Shown here in pieces: positions 16,843 to 33,529 of a stretch of 33,529 nt of DNA (position 1 is its first letter; each line of letters starts with the position of its first letter). The stretch comes from Helicobacter cetorum (GTDB lineage Bacteria; Campylobacterota; Campylobacteria; Campylobacterales; UBA6016). A program made the position numbers and the translations under genes. Under the pieces are notes generated by a model. It saw only the letters and a list, made by a program, of their open reading frames with translations, made no database searches and had not been told where the DNA came from. Where the stretch lies: positions 1 to 33,529 of the forward strand of contig DZAX01000022.1 in NCBI GenBank assembly GCA_022729705.1, in the 5' to 3' direction.

Positions 16843-19335
16843 CTACCCCTTGATTATCTCGGTGTGTTTAAACTTATAGCCGCCCCTTAAGCTTTCAAAG
16901 CAAGGATTACCGGACATATATCCCCCAGCCAAAAGCGCATTTGAGGAGAGCTTATCGTCTACTTTTACCTTATAGTTTGCGCTATGCCCAACCGTTTTGA
17001 GCGTGACGCTATCTCCGCACGCAAGAGAATAAGCCGTCGCCGCTGTTTTTGGAACATAAAGAGTATCGACCTCTTCTGCAATTTGGCTACACTTCGCCGT
17101 CCACCCATTAAACTGCCCCGTAGGAGCACTAACATAAACCAAAGTTCCGTTCATCTCTTCCAAATCAGCTATCTCTTCTAAGACTCCGTTAGTTTCCATA
17201 TCTTTGGTTTTTAAGATATATCCTCTATCTTCTGTTCCGTCATTTAAAAAACGGTTTGGCAAAGAGTCAAAAGATATATTTTTAAATCCTTTTTCTACTG
17301 GAAGCTCTTTTGTATACTCTATCGTGTACTCTTTTGTTATTCCAAGAGCTTTAGCTAAATCATTTAATTCATACCCTTTAAACTCTAAAGCGGCATTTAT
17401 TGGAACTACTCTTTTGTCTATGTTTACAAAAGTTCCCTCTTGCTGATTTAGAGCGGGCATATCAAGGGCGTTTTCTTTTGACTCAGAACCTAGCGAGGTA
17501 AGCATAAAATCTCCCTCTTCGTTGTAGCCTACCGTAAAGCCCTCAGCTTCTTCGTCTAAATCACATATTAGCGATACGCCTAAAGTGTTTGTTTGGGATG
17601 GAATAATCAACACTTTAAAATCTGACGCTTTTTCAAATATAGCGGCTAGACGCGCTATATTTTGGGCTCTTGGGTGGGCGTATAGGTCGGCGCCTAGGAT
17701 TAGGATCGGTTTTGCTTTTTTTAGAGTTACCATCTTCTCTCTATCCTCAAGAGCTAGTCCTATCTCGGTAAACAAGCTTGATGAGAGTGTCTCAACCTCT
17801 TTTGTAACTGTTTTTTCAACTTCTTTTGTGATAATTTTTTCTACTTCGCTTGTTGTTCCATCTTCGTTTGTAATAGTCTCTTTTATACTCTCTTGCACTT
17901 TTTCTTTTACTTTTTCACTAACCGTTTTTAGGTATGTTGTCTTAAGAGTTTCTAGCTTAGAGGCTATATCTTGCGGCAACTTTTGTGCGTCGCAATAAGC
18001 GTCTATAAGAGCTAGTATCGTCTTTTCTTCAAAAAGCGGTTTATAGTTTAGTTGTAGCATATTTTTTGACAACCCTGAAATTACAGAGTCATTTATAGGG
18101 TGCATATAAACCGCCGCGCCTTTATTCATTGTGACGGCGTTATTTACCGCAAATCGCAAAACCGGATTGTCTGTTTTTATCATAGACCCAAGCGTGATGA
18201 CAAACGAGCTGTTATGCACATCTTTTGAGTCCGCCGAATACAAACTTTTGCCGCTAACGCTCGCGTAAGCGTCCATAAACTTTTTAAACTCGCTTGCGTC
18301 TTTGTTTATTAGTTTTACGCCTATTTTCTCTTTTATTGTTTGAAGAATTTTTGCTTCTTCGTTTGTTATAAATGAGTTAAATTTTATACTTTGAGCTGAT
18401 TTTAAAGCTTTAACAGCTTTACCAAATGCTGTTTCATCTTTTTTGGCTCTGTTTTCGTAGTCATAGCCAAAGCGTCCGGCTGCGCACAAACTTTGAAAAT
18501 TCCACTCATTTCTTACTCTATATATACGCTCCTCGGCGTTGTCTATCGAGGCGTGTTTTACTTCGTAGTATAGATGGCATGCAGACGAGCAGTGAGTACA
18601 CGATGATGGTACCTGGGTAAGCTCCCATGAATTTGACTTATAGGTAAAATCAGAGCTTGTGAGAGCCCCGACAGGACAAACGGCAATACACTCGCCGCAC
18701 ATCGTACAATCCAAAACATCAGGATTACCACTTTTGGTTCCGATGATATTTTTTTGCATTCTTGTCCAAATAGTAAACGCATTTTTAGGAGTCGTCTCTT
18801 TAAACGCTTTGTCTATCTCCGCTCCGCCTCTAGGAGTAGTCCCAAGAGCGGCGTCGCCCACCATGTCTTTGCACACCGTAACACATCTTTCGCACACTAT
18901 ACACAAAGAGGCGTCATATTTTATAGTATTCCATTTTCTTACAGGTCGCACACAATCTGGCACGCTATAAGCTTGATGTCCCACACCCATCTCTAGCGTA
19001 TAGTTTTGCAGTTCGCACTCTCCCGATTTATCACACACGCCGCACTCCAGCGGATGGTTTATGTCGTATACCTGCATGATAGCTTGTCGCTCAGATTTCA
19101 CCTCTTCTGAGTTTGTAACTATCTGCATACCCTCTTTTGGTTTTGCATTGCAGGCAAAAACCTGCTTTCCGTCCGCTTCGACAAGACAGATTCTGCACGC
19201 CAAGGTCGGGGAACATCTGCTTAAATAGCAAATCGCTGGTATAAAAATACCGTTTGCTCTAGCGATATTCAGTACAGTATCAGAGTCATTCCCTTCTAAA
19301 GGAGTTCCGTCAATAAAAAAATTTACTTTTGCCAT
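16843..19335 (-). CDS. nuoG: NADH-quinone oxidoreductase subunit G, second copy (NuoG2)
   Basis: 830 aa. The N-terminus has the 2Fe-2S motif (CYLSRCSPTLACRICLVEAD), the His-Cys segment HPLECGVCDKSGECELQN, and two 4Fe-4S motifs (CIVCERCVTVC and CTMCGECIAVCPVGAL). A molybdopterin-oxidoreductase-like domain follows, with its own cluster motif CTHCSSACHLYYE, then SLCAAGRFGYDYENR. No molybdenum is expected in NuoG. Residues about 469-518 carry a charged insertion with repeats (EVEKIITKEVEKTVTKEVE) absent from NuoG1. Residues 546-745 are nearly identical, also at DNA level, to NuoG1. It starts 2 nt after the first copy. Tandem nuoG genes are known in some Campylobacterota; which copy does what cannot be told here. 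Confidence 0.93.
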   Translation of the reverse strand: MAKVNFFIDGTPLEGNDSDTVLNIARANGIFIPAICYLSRCSPTLACRICLVEADGKQVFACNAKPKEGMQIVTNSEEVKSERQAIMQVYDINHPLECGVCDKSGECELQNYTLEMGVGHQAYSVPDCVRPVRKWNTIKYDASLCIVCERCVTVCKDMVGDAALGTTPRGGAEIDKAFKETTPKNAFTIWTRMQKNIIGTKSGNPDVLDCTMCGECIAVCPVGALTSSDFTYKSNSWELTQVPSSCTHCSSACHLYYEVKHASIDNAEERIYRVRNEWNFQSLCAAGRFGYDYENRAKKDETAFGKAVKALKSAQSIKFNSFITNEEAKILQTIKEKIGVKLINKDASEFKKFMDAYASVSGKSLYSADSKDVHNSSFVITLGSMIKTDNPVLRFAVNNAVTMNKGAAVYMHPINDSVISGLSKNMLQLNYKPLFEEKTILALIDAYCDAQKLPQDIASKLETLKTTYLKTVSEKVKEKVQESIKETITNEDGTTSEVEKIITKEVEKTVTKEVETLSSSLFTEIGLALEDREKMVTLKKAKPILILGADLYAHPRAQNIARLAAIFEKASDFKVLIIPSQTNTLGVSLICDLDEEAEGFTVGYNEEGDFMLTSLGSESKENALDMPALNQQEGTFVNIDKRVVPINAALEFKGYELNDLAKALGITKEYTIEYTKELPVEKGFKNISFDSLPNRFLNDGTEDRGYILKTKDMETNGVLEEIADLEEMNGTLVYVSAPTGQFNGWTAKCSQIAEEVDTLYVPKTAATAYSLACGDSVTLKTVGHSANYKVKVDDKLSSNALLAGGYMSGNPCFESLRGGYKFKHTEIIKG
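17099..17700. repeat. 602-bp near-identical tract, copy in nuoG2
   Basis: Matches 19582-20183 at a constant offset of 2483 with about 3 mismatches and no gap. Both borders are abrupt: sequences outside differ strongly. The tract keeps the reading frame in both genes. A shorter, less perfect match (about 18233-18412 with 20560-20739) lies in the same gene pair. Confidence 0.92.
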
Positions 19336-19337
19336 TC

Positions 19338-21593
19338 TTAATTATTACCTTGCGCGGTTATTTTTGCTCTTTTAAACTTGTATCCAGAAGCTTGAAAATC
19401 TAACTTAGAAACTATAGCGCCAGTTCCTTTTAAATCTTCACAAAATTTAAATTCCCCAAATATGCCATACCCCTCAGAGCTAATGGAAATTTTTTCAGAG
19501 TCCGCTATTTTAGCCGCTTGCATGAATGCTTTTGAGCCTAAAATTTGCCCATTTTGATATTTTAGATTATTACTTTTTTTTGTCCACCCATTAAACTGCC
19601 CCGTAGGAGTGCTAACATAAACCAAAGTTCCGTTCATCTCTTCCAAATCAGCTATCTCTTCTAAGACTCCGTTAGTTTCCATATCTTTGGTTTTTAAGAT
19701 ATATCCTCTATCTTCTGTTCCGTCATTTAAAAAACGGTTTGGCAAAGAGTCAAAAGATATATTTTTAAATCCTTTTTCTACTGGAAGCTCTTTTGTATAC
19801 TCTATCGTGTACTCTTTTGTTATTCCAAGAGCTTTAGCTAAATCATTTAATTCATACCCTTTAAACTCTAAAGCGGCATTTATTGGAACTACTCTTTTGT
19901 CTATGTTTACAAAAGTTCCCTCTTGCTGATTTAGAGCGGGCATATCAAGGGCGTTTTCTTTTGACTCAGAACCTAGCGAGGTAAGCATAAAATCTCCCTC
20001 TTCGTTGTAGCCTACCGTAAAGCCCTCAGCTTCTTCGTCTAAATCACATATTAGCGATACGCCTAAAGTGTTTGTTTGGGATGGAATAATCAACACTTTA
20101 AAATCTGACGCTTTTTCAAATATAGCGGCTAGACGCGCTATGTTTTGGGCTCTTGGGTGGGCGTATAGGTCGGCGCCTAGGATCAGGACTCTATTTTTTG
20201 TTTTTGCAAAAAGCTTCTTTATATCCGCCTGCTCCGCCTCGTCAAAACTAGACTCAGAACTCACATACCCCATATCCAAAGCCTCAAAAAACTCCTCTTC
20301 GCCTACATCCAAACGACTTCTATCTATAAAAATAGACGCTAAAAGAGCTATTACACCCTCTTCGCTTTTTGGTTCATATTTGACAAACTTATTAATATTT
20401 GGCGTCAATAGATAGTCTTCTATCGGATGAAGATAAATAACTTTTGCGTTTTTCTTTTTTGAAGCTTCGTTTAGCGCATATCTTGCCATCGGATTATCAT
20501 AACTTATCCTAGAGCCAAGTGCAATAATACCCTCGGCGTTCTTTACGTCCGCAAGTGTCGCCGAATATAGACTTTTGCCGCTAACGCTCGCATAAGCGTC
20601 CATAAACTTTTTAAACTCGCTTGCGTCTTTATTGACTAGTTTTACGCCTATTTTCTCTTTTATTGTTTGAAGAATTTTTGCCTCTTCGTTTGTTATAAAC
20701 GAGTTGAATTTTATACTTTGAGCTGATTTTAATGCTCCTAGGGCTTTACTAAAGGCTACTTCATCTTTTTTTGCTCTGTTTTCGTAGTCAAAGCCAAAGC
20801 GTCCAGCCTTACACAAAGAGCTAAACTCAAAATCGTTTGTCACTCTGTATATTTTTGACTCCACATCTGTGGTTGCCGTGTGTTTTGACTCGTATGTAAG
20901 ATGGCAAGCAGAAGAGCAGTGTGCGCAAGCGGAGGGCGTTTTGCGAAGCTCCCAAGCGTTTGCGCTATACTTAAAATCACGGCTTATAAGTGCACCGACA
21001 GGGCAAACGGCGATACACTCTCCACAAAATGTACAATCAAGCGTATCTGAATTTTTTGGAACGATAACAGATTTGTATCCGCCAACGCTTATTTCTATCG
21101 CATCATCGCCAATAATCTCGTTGCAAGTGTGAACACATTTTTCGCAAAGTACGCAAAGGCTTGGGTCATACTGAATAAAACCCCAATCTTTTATCACCCG
21201 TTTTTGTTCTTTTGCCATAAAATTTTGAGTCGCAACACCAAATTCCAACGCCTTATTTTGCAAATCACATTCGCCTGATTTATCGCATACGCCGCATTCT
21301 AACGGGTGATTTACGCAGTAAAGTTGTATGATTTTTTGACGCTCTTTTTCTAGCTTATCAGAGTTTGTTTTGATGGTAAGTCCGTCTATAACTTTTGTTT
21401 GACACGCAAGTATTAGACCCTCTTGATTCTCAGCCTCGACCACGCAAAGCCTACAAGACGCTATTGGCTCGCATTTTGGCAGATAACAGAGAGTCGGTAT
21501 ATATACGCCCGCCTTTCTAGCGGCTTGCAGTATTGTGTCGTTTTTTTTGGCGCTTATCTCAACGCCGTTTAAACTTATTTTCACTTCACTCAC
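19338..21593 (-). CDS. nuoG: NADH-quinone oxidoreductase subunit G, first copy (NuoG1)
   Basis: 751 aa. It has the same iron-sulfur layout as NuoG2: 2Fe-2S ligands in CYLPKCEPIASCRLCVVEAE, the N5-type segment HPLECGVCDKSGECDLQN, 4Fe-4S ligands in CVLCEKCVHTC and CTFCGECIAVCPVGAL, then CAHCSSACHLTYE with SLCKAGRFGFDYENR. The molybdopterin-like domain continues to the C-terminus. The long KEVE-repeat insertion of NuoG2 is missing; in its place is a shorter acidic segment (SYVSSESSFDEAEQADIKKLF region). Residues about 471-670 match NuoG2 almost perfectly. It starts 1 nt after the flavoprotein gene, so the pair is coexpressed in the operon. Electrons would pass from the NuoF-like module through this subunit to NuoI. 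Confidence 0.94.
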   Translation of the reverse strand: MSEVKISLNGVEISAKKNDTILQAARKAGVYIPTLCYLPKCEPIASCRLCVVEAENQEGLILACQTKVIDGLTIKTNSDKLEKERQKIIQLYCVNHPLECGVCDKSGECDLQNKALEFGVATQNFMAKEQKRVIKDWGFIQYDPSLCVLCEKCVHTCNEIIGDDAIEISVGGYKSVIVPKNSDTLDCTFCGECIAVCPVGALISRDFKYSANAWELRKTPSACAHCSSACHLTYESKHTATTDVESKIYRVTNDFEFSSLCKAGRFGFDYENRAKKDEVAFSKALGALKSAQSIKFNSFITNEEAKILQTIKEKIGVKLVNKDASEFKKFMDAYASVSGKSLYSATLADVKNAEGIIALGSRISYDNPMARYALNEASKKKNAKVIYLHPIEDYLLTPNINKFVKYEPKSEEGVIALLASIFIDRSRLDVGEEEFFEALDMGYVSSESSFDEAEQADIKKLFAKTKNRVLILGADLYAHPRAQNIARLAAIFEKASDFKVLIIPSQTNTLGVSLICDLDEEAEGFTVGYNEEGDFMLTSLGSESKENALDMPALNQQEGTFVNIDKRVVPINAALEFKGYELNDLAKALGITKEYTIEYTKELPVEKGFKNISFDSLPNRFLNDGTEDRGYILKTKDMETNGVLEEIADLEEMNGTLVYVSTPTGQFNGWTKKSNNLKYQNGQILGSKAFMQAAKIADSEKISISSEGYGIFGEFKFCEDLKGTGAIVSKLDFQASGYKFKRAKITAQGNN
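19582..20183. repeat. 602-bp near-identical tract, copy in nuoG1
   Basis: Partner of 17099-17700. Visible differences are a two-base change that makes Thr in place of Ala near one end, and one silent A/G change near the other. Such identity confined to the middle of otherwise diverged paralogues points to recent gene conversion. Confidence 0.92.
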
Positions 21594-28785: not shown

Positions 28786-28854
28786 TTTTTTTTGCGCGCC
28801 GTACAGGCAAAAATCTGTATGATTTTACTAGAAAATTCTTTTGGAGCGTTGAAG

Positions 28855-29526
28855 TTGATATTCTCATACGATGAACAAAGCGGTGCAGAGCTTTTAAAAA
28901 TAGACGGCGAAAACTTCAGACATCTATTTTTGGCTAGAAGGTCTGCAGAACATGAAAAGTTTTTGTTTAGAAATCTCAAAGACTCTTTTTTGTACGAATA
29001 TGAAACGTCAAATATTGGAAAAAAAGAGGCGACTTTGAAACTGATAAACTCTTACGAGGAGCCGCAAGAGACAAAAAGGGAGCGTGAAATAGCATGGTGC
29101 GTGGTAGACCCAAAAACAATCGAAAAAACACTTCCGGCTCTAAACGAACTTGGAATTGACAACATATACTTTATATACTCAGCCAGAAGTCAAAAAAACT
29201 TCAAAATAGATATAGAGAGAATAAATAGAATACTCATAAATTCCTGCTGTCAATGCGGCAGAACAAAACTAATGGATGTGCATACGTTCAAAAACATCGA
29301 AGAGTTTTGCAATGAAAAAAAAGAGTTTTTTGTTTTAGATTTTGGCGGAGAGCTTTTTGGCGATATAAAAGAGGGGTTATTTTTGATTGGACCAGAGGGT
29401 GGCTTTACAAACGACGAGAAAGTTTTTTTAAAATCAAAAGCGCAAAAAGTGATCTCATTTTTTGGCGCAAACGTCCTAAAAAGCGAAACCGCCGCCATAG
29501 CAGTTGCGTCGCTGTGCGCGATATAG
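28855..29526 (+). CDS. rsmE: 16S rRNA (uracil1498-N3)-methyltransferase
   Basis: 223 aa from TTG 28855 (IFSYDEQSGAELLKIDGENFRHL), chosen because GGAG lies 8 nt upstream and homologues start at this point; ATG 28819 or further upstream would add residues not typical of the family. The N-terminal PUA-like part ends near HLFLARR. The SPOUT methyltransferase part has the knot motifs LIGPEGGFTNDE and FGANVLKSETAAIAVASL, which bind SAM. The enzyme methylates U1498 of 16S rRNA. cas12a starts 34 nt after its stop on the same strand. Confidence 0.93.
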   Translation: MIFSYDEQSGAELLKIDGENFRHLFLARRSAEHEKFLFRNLKDSFLYEYETSNIGKKEATLKLINSYEEPQETKREREIAWCVVDPKTIEKTLPALNELGIDNIYFIYSARSQKNFKIDIERINRILINSCCQCGRTKLMDVHTFKNIEEFCNEKKEFFVLDFGGELFGDIKEGLFLIGPEGGFTNDEKVFLKSKAQKVISFFGANVLKSETAAIAVASLCAI

Positions 29527-29560: not shown

Positions 29561-32500
29561 ATGCTTTTAAAATTCACAAACCGTTACCCGCTTTCAAAAA
29601 CACTCCGATTTGAATTAAAGCCGATAGGTAAGACTAAAGATTATATTGAGCAAAAAGGGCTTTTGAGTCAAGACGAAGAGCGAGCGGAAGATTACAAAAG
29701 GGTCAAAAAAATTATTGACGAATACCATAAAGATTTTATACACAAGTCTTTATCGGGTGTTAGGCTTGAGGCTTTGGATGAATTTGAAAAGATGTATTTG
29801 TTGCCGTCAAAAGACGATAAGGTGCAAAAAGAGTTTGAAAAACTACAAGAGTCTTTGCGCAAGCAAATAGTATCGGCTTTTAGGGCGCATCCAACTTTTA
29901 AAAATCTTTTCGCAAAAGAGCTAATCAAAGACGAACTTGCCTCTTTTGTGACCGACGAGTCGGACAAGACGCTAATAGAAAAATTCAAAAATTTTACGAC
30001 TTATTTTACGGGTTTTCACAAAAATAGAGCCAATATGTACACACACGAGCCAAAACATTCAGCCGTCGTCTATCGCATCGTACACGAAAATTTACCGATA
30101 TTTTTGTCTAACAAAAAAGCTTTTGAGGGTGTAAGGCGAGACTACCCAGAACTTTTGGAGCAGGCACAATCATCGCTGCTTAAGCATTTAGAGGGCGGCA
30201 TTGTCGAAGATATGTTTTCGCTCGAATACCTCTCTTTTGCGCTATCCCAAAAATACATAGATTTGTACAACACCATGCTAGGCGGCAAAACGCTAGAAGA
30301 CGGCACGAAGGTGCAGGGGTTTAACGAAAAAATAAACCTCCATAGGCAAGCAAACGGCATCGATAAAAGAAAACTTCCAAATTTTAAAGCTCTAAACAAA
30401 CAAATTCTAAGCGACCGTGAATCGCTCTCGTGGCTACCCGAGGCTTTCAAAACCAAAGAGGAGCGAACGGAGGCGGTCGGGGTATTTTATGTTGAACATA
30501 TTACAACGTTCCAATGCTGTGACGGCGTTGTTGATTTGCTGGAGCGTATCCCTGAGCTATTTACGCTAAAAAATATATATGAACCGTCAAAGATTTTTGT
30601 CAAAAACGACCTATCTCTTACCGCCATATCTCAAAGCCTATGTAATGACTATCGTACAATCCGTGAAGCTCTATGGCAAAAACACTTGTCGCAAAATCCA
30701 AAAGCCCAAAAATCAAAAGACCTTGCAGGCGATGAGGAGAGATTTTTCAACCGCAAAAATTCGTTTTTTTCCGTTGCCCAAATAGAGGCGGCGCTAAGTG
30801 AATACGCAAGCGAAAAATCTATGTTTGATTATTTTTACAAAGGCGCAGAGCAAGCGGCAAGCGAAATCAAAAACACATATGCTTCATGGGTAAATAATTC
30901 AAGCGACACAAAAACTACAAAAGAACTACTAGATGCGATTTTGTCGATGCAAAGACACCTCAAACCTCTATATGTCAAGACCGATACTGACAAAGATATT
31001 GCTTTTTATGCAATGTTCGACACATATTTTGAGAGTCTAAACGGTATATCAAAACTATACGACAAAGTCCGAAATTTTGAGACCAAAAAGCCGTACTCTC
31101 TCGAAAAATTTAAGCTCAATTTTGAAAATAGCACCCTGCTTGACGGTTGGGATGTAAACAAAGAGCCCGACAATACGGCTATATTATTTCTCAAAGACGG
31201 ACTGTATTATCTGGGTATTATGGACAAAAAACACAATCGTGCACTCAAAAATATTCAGCCGACGACAAAAGAGGGCGGATATAAAAAAGTAGAATACAAG
31301 CTTTTACCAGGGGCAAATAAAATGCTTCCAAAGGTATTTTTTTCCAATTCTCGTATAAATGAGTTTGCACCGAGTACTCAACTGCTAGAAAATTATAAAA
31401 ATGATACGCACAAAAAAGGCGACAAGTTTAGCCTAGCCGACTGCCACACTCTAATTGATTTTTTCAAGGCTTCAATACAAAAGCATGAAGATTGGAAACA
31501 TTTTGGATTTAATTTCTCCCCAACCTCATCATACGAAGACCTTAGCGGATTTTATCGAGAAGTTGAACAGCAAGGCTACAAAATCACATACAAAAATATT
31601 GATGCTGACTATATCGACACCTTGGTTGCAGAAGGCAAACTCTATCTATTTCAAATCTACAACAAAGACTTCTCGCCGTATAGCAATGGTACGCCAAATA
31701 TGCATACGCTGTATTGGAGAGCGCTTTTTGACGAGCGAAATCTCGCCGATGTGGTCTACAAGCTCAACGGTCAAGCGGAGATTTTTTACCGCAAAAAATC
31801 GCTTGACTATTCGGAGGAGAAGCTAAAAGTAGGCCATCATCCAGAGCTAAAGAGTTTTGCCTATCCTATCATCAAAGACCGCCGTTTTGCATTTGATAAA
31901 TTCCAGTTTCATGTACCAATTACTCTCAATTTCAAGGCTACGGGCGGCGACAATATCAATGCGTATGTCAATGGATTTATAGCAAACAACACCGACAATA
32001 TAAAAATCATAGGCATAGACAGGGGTGAGCGCCATCTGCTATATGTCTCGCTAATCGACACAAAAGGTCGCATAGTAGAGCAATACTCGCTAAATCAAAT
32101 CATCAACAGCTACAACGGCAAAGAGCATGTCATCGACTATCGCGACAAGCTCGCCAAAAAAGAGGATGAACGGGCAAAAGCTAGGGTAGAGTGGGGTAGC
32201 GTCGAAAATATCAAAGAGCTAAAAGAGGGATATATGAGCCATGTAATCCACCGTATAGCTACGCTCATGGTGGAACACAACGCTATCGTCGTCCTCGAAG
32301 ACCTTAACTTTGGTTTCAAAAGAGGGCGTTTTAAGGTCGAAAAACAGGTGTACCAAAAGTTTGAAAAAATGCTCATAGATAAGCTAAATTATCTAGTGGA
32401 TAAGCAAAAATCGCCCAGTGAAATCGGCGGCGCACTAAATGCGCTTCAGCTAACAAACAAATTTGAGAGCTTTGAGAAGATGGGCAAACAAAGCGGCTTT

Positions 32501-33145
32501 TTGTACTATGTACCCGCATGGAACACTTCAAAGATAGACCCAGTGACGGGGTTTGTCAATCTCTTTGACGCTCGTTATGCTAGCGTTGAAAAGGCGAAAG
32601 AGTTTTTCGGCAAATTCAAGTCGATAAGATACAACGACGCAAAAGGCTATTTTGAGTTTGAGTTTGACTACAAAGATTTTACCGACAAGGCGACTGATAC
32701 CCGCACGGCGTGGACGCTTTGCACACACGGTGAGAGAATAAAGACATTCAGAAATCCAGACACAAACAATCAATGGGATAGCAAAACCGTCCATCTAGCG
32801 ACCGAGTTCAAAAATCTATTCGGCACTTACGGTGGCGATTTGAAGGACTACATATCGGCACAAACCGAAAAGAGATTTTTTGAGGAGCTACTCTATCTTT
32901 TTAGACTGACGCTGCAAATGCGAAACTCTATGACGGGTACAGATATAGACTATCTCGTCTCGCCTGTAGCAGATGCTAGCGGACAGTTTTTTGATAGTCG
33001 CAATTATGCCAATATAGAAAATCCGTCACTTCCGAAAGATGCGGACGCAAACGGCGCATACAACATAGCGCGCAAAGGTCTTATGTTGGTGCAAAAAATC
33101 AAAAATGCCGACGATATAAAAAAAATAGACTTTAAAATAACGTAA
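29561..33145 (+). CDS. cas12a: Cas12a (Cpf1), type V-A CRISPR effector, C-terminus cut short by an insertion
   Basis: 1194 aa. It is the RNA-guided nuclease of type V-A systems, which processes its own crRNA and cuts DNA with one RuvC site. The N-terminus NRYPLSKTLRFELKPIGKT is typical. The crRNA-processing region shows VGHHPELKSFAYPIIKDRRFAFDKFQFHVPITLNF; the loop between the His and the KDRRF lysine is shorter than in FnCas12a and LbCas12a. RuvC residues are D820 (IIGIDRGERHLLYVSLI), E913 (VVLEDLNFGFKRGR) and D1162 (DADANGAYNIARKG). The Nuc arginine is R1121 (MRNSMTGTDIDYLVSPV). All catalytic residues are present. The stop codon (33143-33145) lies inside a transposon terminal repeat. Without the insertion the frame would run to 33334 and add NKEWLRFAQGLEG after IT (1207 aa). 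The gene lies just after rsmE with no obvious promoter. Confidence 0.97.
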   Translation: MLLKFTNRYPLSKTLRFELKPIGKTKDYIEQKGLLSQDEERAEDYKRVKKIIDEYHKDFIHKSLSGVRLEALDEFEKMYLLPSKDDKVQKEFEKLQESLRKQIVSAFRAHPTFKNLFAKELIKDELASFVTDESDKTLIEKFKNFTTYFTGFHKNRANMYTHEPKHSAVVYRIVHENLPIFLSNKKAFEGVRRDYPELLEQAQSSLLKHLEGGIVEDMFSLEYLSFALSQKYIDLYNTMLGGKTLEDGTKVQGFNEKINLHRQANGIDKRKLPNFKALNKQILSDRESLSWLPEAFKTKEERTEAVGVFYVEHITTFQCCDGVVDLLERIPELFTLKNIYEPSKIFVKNDLSLTAISQSLCNDYRTIREALWQKHLSQNPKAQKSKDLAGDEERFFNRKNSFFSVAQIEAALSEYASEKSMFDYFYKGAEQAASEIKNTYASWVNNSSDTKTTKELLDAILSMQRHLKPLYVKTDTDKDIAFYAMFDTYFESLNGISKLYDKVRNFETKKPYSLEKFKLNFENSTLLDGWDVNKEPDNTAILFLKDGLYYLGIMDKKHNRALKNIQPTTKEGGYKKVEYKLLPGANKMLPKVFFSNSRINEFAPSTQLLENYKNDTHKKGDKFSLADCHTLIDFFKASIQKHEDWKHFGFNFSPTSSYEDLSGFYREVEQQGYKITYKNIDADYIDTLVAEGKLYLFQIYNKDFSPYSNGTPNMHTLYWRALFDERNLADVVYKLNGQAEIFYRKKSLDYSEEKLKVGHHPELKSFAYPIIKDRRFAFDKFQFHVPITLNFKATGGDNINAYVNGFIANNTDNIKIIGIDRGERHLLYVSLIDTKGRIVEQYSLNQIINSYNGKEHVIDYRDKLAKKEDERAKARVEWGSVENIKELKEGYMSHVIHRIATLMVEHNAIVVLEDLNFGFKRGRFKVEKQVYQKFEKMLIDKLNYLVDKQKSPSEIGGALNALQLTNKFESFEKMGKQSGFLYYVPAWNTSKIDPVTGFVNLFDARYASVEKAKEFFGKFKSIRYNDAKGYFEFEFDYKDFTDKATDTRTAWTLCTHGERIKTFRNPDTNNQWDSKTVHLATEFKNLFGTYGGDLKDYISAQTEKRFFEELLYLFRLTLQMRNSMTGTDIDYLVSPVADASGQFFDSRNYANIENPSLPKDADANGAYNIARKGLMLVQKIKNADDIKKIDFKIT
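33134..33141 (+). repeat. Target-site duplication, left copy (AAAATAAC)
   Basis: Eight bases AAAATAAC directly outside the left end of the 142-bp element. They are repeated exactly at 33284-33291 outside its right end. Confidence 0.85.
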
Positions 33146-33283
33146 CCATTCAGCACCCCCTTCTGAAAGCTCAATTTTTGAGATAAAATCCTCAAAAAAG
33201 TCGATATTTTTTCTTTTTTCTTATTGAAATAGCCACTTTTCCATGCTAATTTTCATTTTTTTACAGGGGTGCTGAATGGTTAC
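33142..33283. mobile_element. 142-bp IS66-type MITE inserted in the 3' end of cas12a
   Basis: Ends are perfect 18-bp inverted repeats: GTAACCATTCAGCACCCC at 33142-33159 and its reverse complement at 33266-33283. They are flanked by an exact 8-bp direct repeat. The interior (106 bp) is A+T-rich and has no meaningful ORF. GTAA termini with 8-bp duplications are the signature of IS66-family elements, so this is probably a non-autonomous derivative mobilised by an IS66 transposase elsewhere. A hairpin TTTTTGAG-N8-CTCAAAAA (33175-33198) followed by T-rich sequence could act as a weak terminator. No second copy is visible in the window. Confidence 0.9.
33224..33252 (+). promoter_or_regulatory. Possible outward promoter inside the MITE
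   Basis: TTGAAA (33224-33229), 17 nt, then TAATTT (33247-33252), preceded by TGC. The -35 matches five of six consensus bases, the -10 about three. It points toward cas4 and could restore its transcription after the insertion. Weak, by eye only. Confidence 0.25.
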
Positions 33284-33291
33284 AAAATAAC
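33284..33291 (+). repeat. Target-site duplication, right copy (AAAATAAC)
   Basis: Exact copy of 33134-33141. The sequence that follows, 33292-33334, is the detached final coding part of cas12a: reading from the codon spanning the junction it gives T-NKEWLRFAQGLEG and TGA at 33332-33334. Confidence 0.85.
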
Positions 33292-33335
33292 AAACAAAGA
33301 GTGGCTACGCTTTGCGCAAGGGCTAGAGGGATGAT

Positions 33336-33509
33336 ATGGAGCCATATATTCCAATCTCATTTCTAAACGATTTTATTTTTTGCCCTCGTTCAATATATTT
33401 TCATCAGCTTTACGGGCAAAGCGACGAGAGTCTGTATCATTCGACAGACCAAAGAGACGGCAAAGCCGCACACGCTATAATCCCCCAAGAAAAACAAACA
33501 ATTTCCTAG
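33336..33509 (+). pseudogene. cas4: cas4, N-terminal part only, frame ends after 57 codons
   Basis: ATG at 33336, with GAGGGA 4 nt upstream and one nucleotide after the ancestral cas12a stop. The 57 residues begin MEPYIPISFLNDFIFCPRSIYFHQLYG and include DQRDGKAAH, the standard start of type V-A Cas4 (a RecB-like nuclease with a 4Fe-4S cluster used in spacer acquisition). FCPR carries the first cluster cysteine. Normal Cas4 has about 170-200 aa with RecB motifs further on; here TAG at 33507-33509 follows EKQTIS. Only 20 nt remain after it, so a frameshift, a nonsense change or low-quality sequence at a contig edge cannot be separated. In another frame the last bases read NFLESFIPCE, which may be the continuation. 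Confidence 0.75.
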
Positions 33510-33529
33510 AAAGTTTTATTCCTTGTGAG

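What the first reader, a model, noticed from the sequence alone, without database searches (positions are those of the whole stretch)
33134..33291. A 142-bp IS66-type MITE with perfect TIRs and 8-bp TSD sits inside the end of cas12a
Directly seen: 18-bp perfect inverted repeats (33142-33159 and 33266-33283) starting with GTAA, and AAAATAAC on both sides. GTAA termini with 8-bp duplications are known for the IS66 family. Small non-autonomous IS66 derivatives in a CRISPR effector gene are, to my knowledge, not a standard description. The exact duplication and perfect ends suggest a recent event.
Basis: partly seen in the sequence, partly recalled or inferred. Interest (0 to 1): 0.8.

Follow-up and report, generated by a model that had tools for sequence, protein, structure and literature searches.

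The report
Tiny IS66-type transposon clips Cas12a
A 142-base non-coding transposon, one of five copies in this genome, has jumped into the last codons of a CRISPR nuclease gene (cas12a) and cut off its final 13 amino acids; it is a clear but ordinary case of mobile DNA damaging a bacterial defence system.

Summary
A 142-bp element with perfect 18-bp inverted repeats lies at 33142-33283, flanked by AAAATAAC on both sides. It is a mobile element. The same genome holds four other full copies, identical to each other, three of them with their own different 8-bp duplications.

The IS66 assignment is well supported. The genome carries a multi-copy IS whose ends match the element's repeats at 17 of 18 bases (16 of 18 at its right end) and which makes 8-bp duplications. 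IS66 transposase (PF03050) remnants abut similar ends, and a Sulfurovum contig carries a 1519-bp IS66 with the same 17-bp terminus. Relatives at 66-73% Cas12a identity have the empty site.

The insertion replaces the last 13 codons of cas12a (NKEWLRFAQGLEG) with a TAA from the repeat itself, and leaves a 190-nt gap before cas4. cas4 is itself interrupted by a second, unrelated multi-copy element at the contig end. cas1, cas2 and a 16-repeat array survive on another contig.

"Recent" needs tempering: this copy has two private substitutions. MITEs in cas genes have already been reported (PMC10359306), so this is a new member of a known kind. Loss of Cas12a activity is likely but unproven.

The parts
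29561..33145 (+). cas12a, now 1194 codons; the stop codon (33143-33145) is supplied by the element's left terminal repeat
   Evidence: ORF list; Pfam RuvC_1, REC1, NUC, PI-like and REC2 domains; 66% identity over 1-1193 to G308 Cas12a
33134..33141 (.). left 8-bp target-site duplication AAAATAAC (cas12a codons)
33142..33283 (.). 142-bp non-coding IS66-type MITE
   Evidence: five near-identical copies in the genome; no substantial ORF
33142..33159 (+). left terminal inverted repeat GTAACCATTCAGCACCCC
33266..33283 (-). right terminal inverted repeat
33284..33291 (.). right 8-bp target-site duplication AAAATAAC
33292..33334 (+). severed 3' end of cas12a; joined to the left flank it reads NKEWLRFAQGLEG followed by stop
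   Evidence: matches the C-termini of G308 (NRDWLRNAQGLDK) and G392 (NKEWLQFAQR), and Cas12a chains in the PDB
33336..33475 (+). 5' part of cas4, interrupted by a second mobile element; the 3' part lies at the start of contig C55 (L071:50-475)
   Evidence: G308 and G392 cas4 continue through this point
33476..33529 (.). end of an unrelated multi-copy element (TATAATCCCCCAAGAAAAACAAAC...) that breaks cas4 and ends the contig
   Evidence: 20 matches of this end in the genome, many at contig ends

Best explanation
It is a 142-bp non-autonomous IS66-type element (MITE). Most likely an IS66-family DDE transposase (TnpC) made by the resident multi-copy IS with near-identical ends recognised its 18-bp repeats in trans. 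It was inserted with an 8-bp staggered cut into the 3' end of cas12a. The element carries TAA at bases 2-4, here in frame, so translation stops at once. Cas12a keeps residues 1-1194 with its three RuvC motifs but loses the conserved C-terminal segment NKEWLRFAQGLEG. The cas12a stop, formerly 1 nt before the cas4 ATG, now lies 190 nt upstream of it. Shown: element, copies, duplications, related IS66 ends, empty site in relatives, truncation. Inferred: mobilisation in trans by this IS, and impaired interference. It is a chance or mildly selected insertion in a type V-A locus that is also broken at cas4, not a designed part of the system.
For: Five 142-bp copies, four identical; 8-bp duplications at four of the five. 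Resident IS ends GTAACCATTCACCACCC[C/A] sit at contig ends, and left and right ends share exact 8-bp flanks in 5 left-right pairings (4 distinct duplications; 0.02 expected). TnpC C-terminal remnants (PF03050) stop right at the related end GTAACCACTCACCTACCCAC. Sulfurovum L119 carries a 1519-bp IS66 with terminus GTAACCATTCAGCACCC and PF03050, zf-IS66 and DUF6444 domains. Similar short elements with exact 8-bp duplications occur in two Clostridia-type MAGs (214 bp, 165 bp). Empty site in G308 and G392. Lost C-terminus conserved in solved Cas12a chains.
Against: MITE and resident IS resemble each other only in the terminal ~18 bp, so the MITE is not a plain internal-deletion product of that IS. 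The copy on contig C62 lacks a duplication. No functional data show that truncated Cas12a is inactive.
Confidence: 0.93

Rival explanations
1. The insertion is functionally near-neutral: truncated Cas12a still works, and only a dispensable tail was lost.
For: Only 13 of about 1207 residues are lost, and all Cas12a domains including the RuvC motifs (IDRGER, EDLNFGF, DADANGAYN) stay in frame. The array's 16 repeats are identical.
Against: The lost segment aligns in every Cas12a chain found in the PDB with the C-terminal query, and in four class relatives, with the N-x-x-W/Y-L/F core largely kept. cas4 downstream is also broken, which suggests relaxed selection on the locus.
Confidence: 0.35
2. 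The insertion was selected because it switched off an autoimmune or costly CRISPR system, as proposed for IS insertions in cas genes (PMC10359306).
For: Two independent mobile elements sit in one operon (cas12a and cas4), and IS inactivation of cas nucleases is selected in the laboratory.
Against: No spacer gives a convincing match elsewhere in this genome; the two weak hits fall in or across repeat sequence. The genome is IS-rich, so hits by chance are expected.
Confidence: 0.2
3. A conserved regulatory hairpin between cas12a and cas4 rather than a transposon.
For: Perfect 18-bp stem, fold z = -7.6.
Against: Other copies lie at unrelated sites with their own duplications. The site is empty in relatives, and no T-run follows the stem.
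Confidence: 0.02

Closest known systems
MITEs and ISs inserted in cas genes (Nat Commun 2023, PMC10359306)
   Same: Mobile elements, including non-autonomous MITEs, interrupt cas genes and leave target-site duplications
   Different: The main text names neither IS66 nor a natural Cas12a case; here the element clips only the last 13 codons
IS66 family (for example ISPsko1, ISPsy43, ISPa97; PMC12888890; ISPpa5a and ISPpa7, PMC3281130)
   Same: Ends begin GTAA(C/G); 8-bp direct repeats; DDE transposase TnpC (PF03050)
   Different: The element has no genes; its TIR after GTAACC differs from those of the Pseudomonas members
IS66 element of Sulfurovum MAG (L119:3196-4714)
   Same: Terminus GTAACCATTCAGCACCC identical to the first 17 bases of the MITE
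   Different: 1519 bp with TnpC in two ORFs; its other end is GTAACCATTCAGCATAA, and its flanks share no duplication
214-bp and 165-bp elements in L101 and L106 (uncultured Clostridia and Lachnospiraceae)
   Same: GTAAC(C/T)ATTCAGCACCCC ends, exact 8-bp duplications, short
   Different: Unrelated interior, different phylum

Membership tests
MITE (non-autonomous miniature IS) | short (<300 bp), no transposase gene | tested here: met
   142 bp, too short for a transposase; six-frame translation shows no substantial ORF
MITE (non-autonomous miniature IS) | terminal inverted repeats | tested here: met
   18/18
MITE (non-autonomous miniature IS) | multiple dispersed copies with own target duplications | tested here: met
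   5 copies, 4 with distinct 8-bp duplications
MITE (non-autonomous miniature IS) | mobilised in trans by a related autonomous IS | not testable with these tools
   needs a transposition assay; only shared ends are shown
IS66 family | ends beginning GTAA | tested here: met
   GTAACCATTCAGCACCCC; published IS66 ends GTAAGCGTCC.. and GTAACCGTCC.. (PMC12888890)
IS66 family | 8-bp target duplication | tested here: met
   literature 8 bp for ISPpa5a and ISPpa7 (PMC3281130)
IS66 family | IS66 transposase between matching ends | tested here: met
   not in the MITE itself; found for related ends: L119, and PF03050 remnants at L011 and L012
IS66 family | intact autonomous parent in the same genome | tested here: inconclusive
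   ends of many copies at contig breaks, body not assembled; only PF03050 fragments found
Type V-A CRISPR-Cas (Cas12a) | cas12a-cas4-cas1-cas2 and array with V-A repeat | tested here: met
   window end plus contig C55: Cas4 fragment, Cas1, Cas2, 16 repeats ending AATTTCTACTGTTGTAGAT; the join of the two contigs is inferred

The most novel reading that the evidence does not exclude
The MITE is a tolerated, possibly regulatory edit. It gives a still-active, C-terminally trimmed Cas12a and, by separating the cas12a stop from the cas4 start by 190 nt, uncouples interference from adaptation.
Probability: 0.08. Interest if true: 0.4.

Novelty: new member of a known kind. Interest (0 to 1): 0.27.

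Why it matters
It adds a well-resolved natural example of a non-autonomous element disabling or trimming a class 2 CRISPR effector. Empty sites in relatives and the conserved missing segment make it a ready natural truncation for asking whether Cas12a needs its C-terminal end. It also shows a type V-A locus hit by two different mobile elements while its array stays intact.

Tried and rejected
No plasmid match for the element. BLAST of the element over 397 class genomes gave only short A/T-rich internal matches not reaching the ends, apart from the own genome. The left end of the resident IS found no relative with body in the class. The TIR pattern scan of viral contigs gave 5 hits without paired ends. 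Self-targeting was tested with the whole array: only weak matches in or across repeat sequence. A second Cas12 effector (such as Cas12a2) was sought with PF18516: none. A MITE-borne promoter for cas4 was considered: one 9/12 match spans the right end (33260-33288), and 3 sites against 1.2 expected is not evidence. Same-genus genomes G001 and G002 gave no match for cas12a or the element, so they give no empty allele. No literature on C-terminal truncation of Cas12a was found.

Full report
OBSERVATION. As single strand the 142 nt fold with z = -7.6. The cas12a ORF (29561-33145, 1194 aa) ends in the TAA of GTAA, the first bases of the element.

MOBILITY. The genome (2.19 Mb, 75 contigs; the window is contig C65) holds four further full-length copies at C62:4157, C40:82987, C33:85 and C20:16216. 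These four are identical to each other; the cas12a copy differs from them at positions 44 and 57, both G>A. C40, C33 and C20 are flanked by GTGTAGAC, GAAATATC and AGTGTAAC, each an exact 8-bp duplication; C62 has none. The ORF contexts place the four other copies outside or at the edge of genes. A related 99-bp element, with a 42-bp internal gap against the 142-bp form, lies at C42. A 43-bp remnant with AAAATCTG on both sides lies at C35. This is a transposed, dispersed family.

FAMILY. An 18-mer search with up to 3 mismatches finds 35 sites in the genome against 0 for the reversed control; many are GTAACCATTCACCACCC[C/A] about 50-100 nt from a contig end. They fall into two classes, a left and a right end, as expected for a repeated IS collapsed by the assembler. 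Pairing 7 left and 9 right ends by flank gives 5 exact 8-bp pairings (4 distinct duplications), with 0.02 expected. The left end opens an ORF MTEQEARDIYHQGEEA and the right end closes one, GLRDALGGRAYIPVGVGW-stop. Elsewhere two PF03050 (DDE_Tnp_IS66) C-terminal remnants stop right before GTAACCACTCACCTACCCAC, read inward from the end. In a public Sulfurovum contig (L119) the terminus GTAACCATTCAGCACCC, identical to the first 17 bases of the MITE, bounds a 1519-bp element with PF03050, zf-IS66 and DUF6444 hits. GTAA-type ends and 8-bp repeats fit published IS66 members (PMC12888890, PMC3281130). Hence an IS66-type MITE. Its interior does not match the resident IS beyond the ends, so it is not a simple deletion of that copy. 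Short elements with nearly the same ends and exact 8-bp duplications also occur in Clostridia-type MAGs (L101, 214 bp; L106, 165 bp), so IS66-end MITEs are not peculiar to this genome.

EFFECT ON THE LOCUS. Reading left flank to right flank gives ...DFKITNKEWLRFAQGLEG-stop, followed 1 nt later by the cas4 ATG. G308 (66% identical) ends ISNRDWLRNAQGLDK and G392 (73%) ends ITNKEWLQFAQR, both running into cas4 without an insert. The segment is conserved in Cas12a chains of the PDB. So 13 residues are lost and cas4 is moved 190 nt away from the new stop. The RuvC motifs IDRGER, EDLNFGF and DADANGAYN are kept. cas4 is itself broken after 33475: a different multi-copy element (TATAATCCCCCAAG..., 20 ends in the genome) begins there and ends the contig. 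Contig C55 starts with what reads as the other end of such an element, then the rest of cas4, then cas1, cas2 and 16 identical 36-nt repeats. Comparison with G308 cas4 suggests a clean insertion with a 3-bp CGC duplication (inference). The joining of C65 to C55 is inferred, not assembled.

MECHANISM AND LIMITS. Transposition by an IS66 TnpC in trans is the best explanation, but an intact transposase gene was not assembled. Whether the truncated Cas12a still works is unknown; I put impaired function ahead of neutrality. No self-targeting spacer was found that would explain selection for loss.

COMPARISON AND NOVELTY. PMC10359306 screened cas genes and reported 163 IS insertions from 20 families, and also MITE insertions. 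The present case is therefore a new member of a known kind. What it adds is a Cas12a effector clipped by an IS66-type MITE, documented with empty sites and related IS66 ends.

Noticed in passing
window 33476-33529; L071:1-52: A second multi-copy element with ends TATAATCCCCCAAG / ...TTGGGGGATTGTA interrupts cas4, apparently with a 3-bp CGC duplication; its family was not identified.
   Followed up: partly
window 28792-29526 and L071:4230-4487: The 3' part of an RsmE-type RNA methyltransferase gene (PF04452) occurs both upstream of cas12a and again after the CRISPR array, as if the V-A module had entered at the end of rsmE and duplicated or brought along its 3' end.
   Followed up: partly
L009:1486-1544 (G000:C35): A 43-bp relic with IS66-type ends (left end reduced to GTAACCAT) still shows an exact 8-bp duplication AAAATCTG, so a larger element there probably lost nearly all its interior.
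   Followed up: partly
L002:1501-1642 (G000:C62): One identical full-length MITE copy has no target duplication (CATTTAAC / GAATAAAA) next to what looks like a cytosine-5 DNA methyltransferase gene, which may reflect recombination between copies.
   Followed up: no
window 16843-19335 and 19338-21593: Two adjacent NADH-dehydrogenase G-like genes share long near-identical stretches (for example ILGADLYAHPRAQNIARLAAIFEKASDFKVL... through VLEEIADLEEMNGTLVYVS), suggesting recent gene conversion.
   Followed up: no
L101:3552-3781 and L106:3539-3719: IS66-end MITEs of 214 and 165 bp with exact 8-bp duplications in uncultured Clostridia and Lachnospiraceae MAGs.
   Followed up: partly
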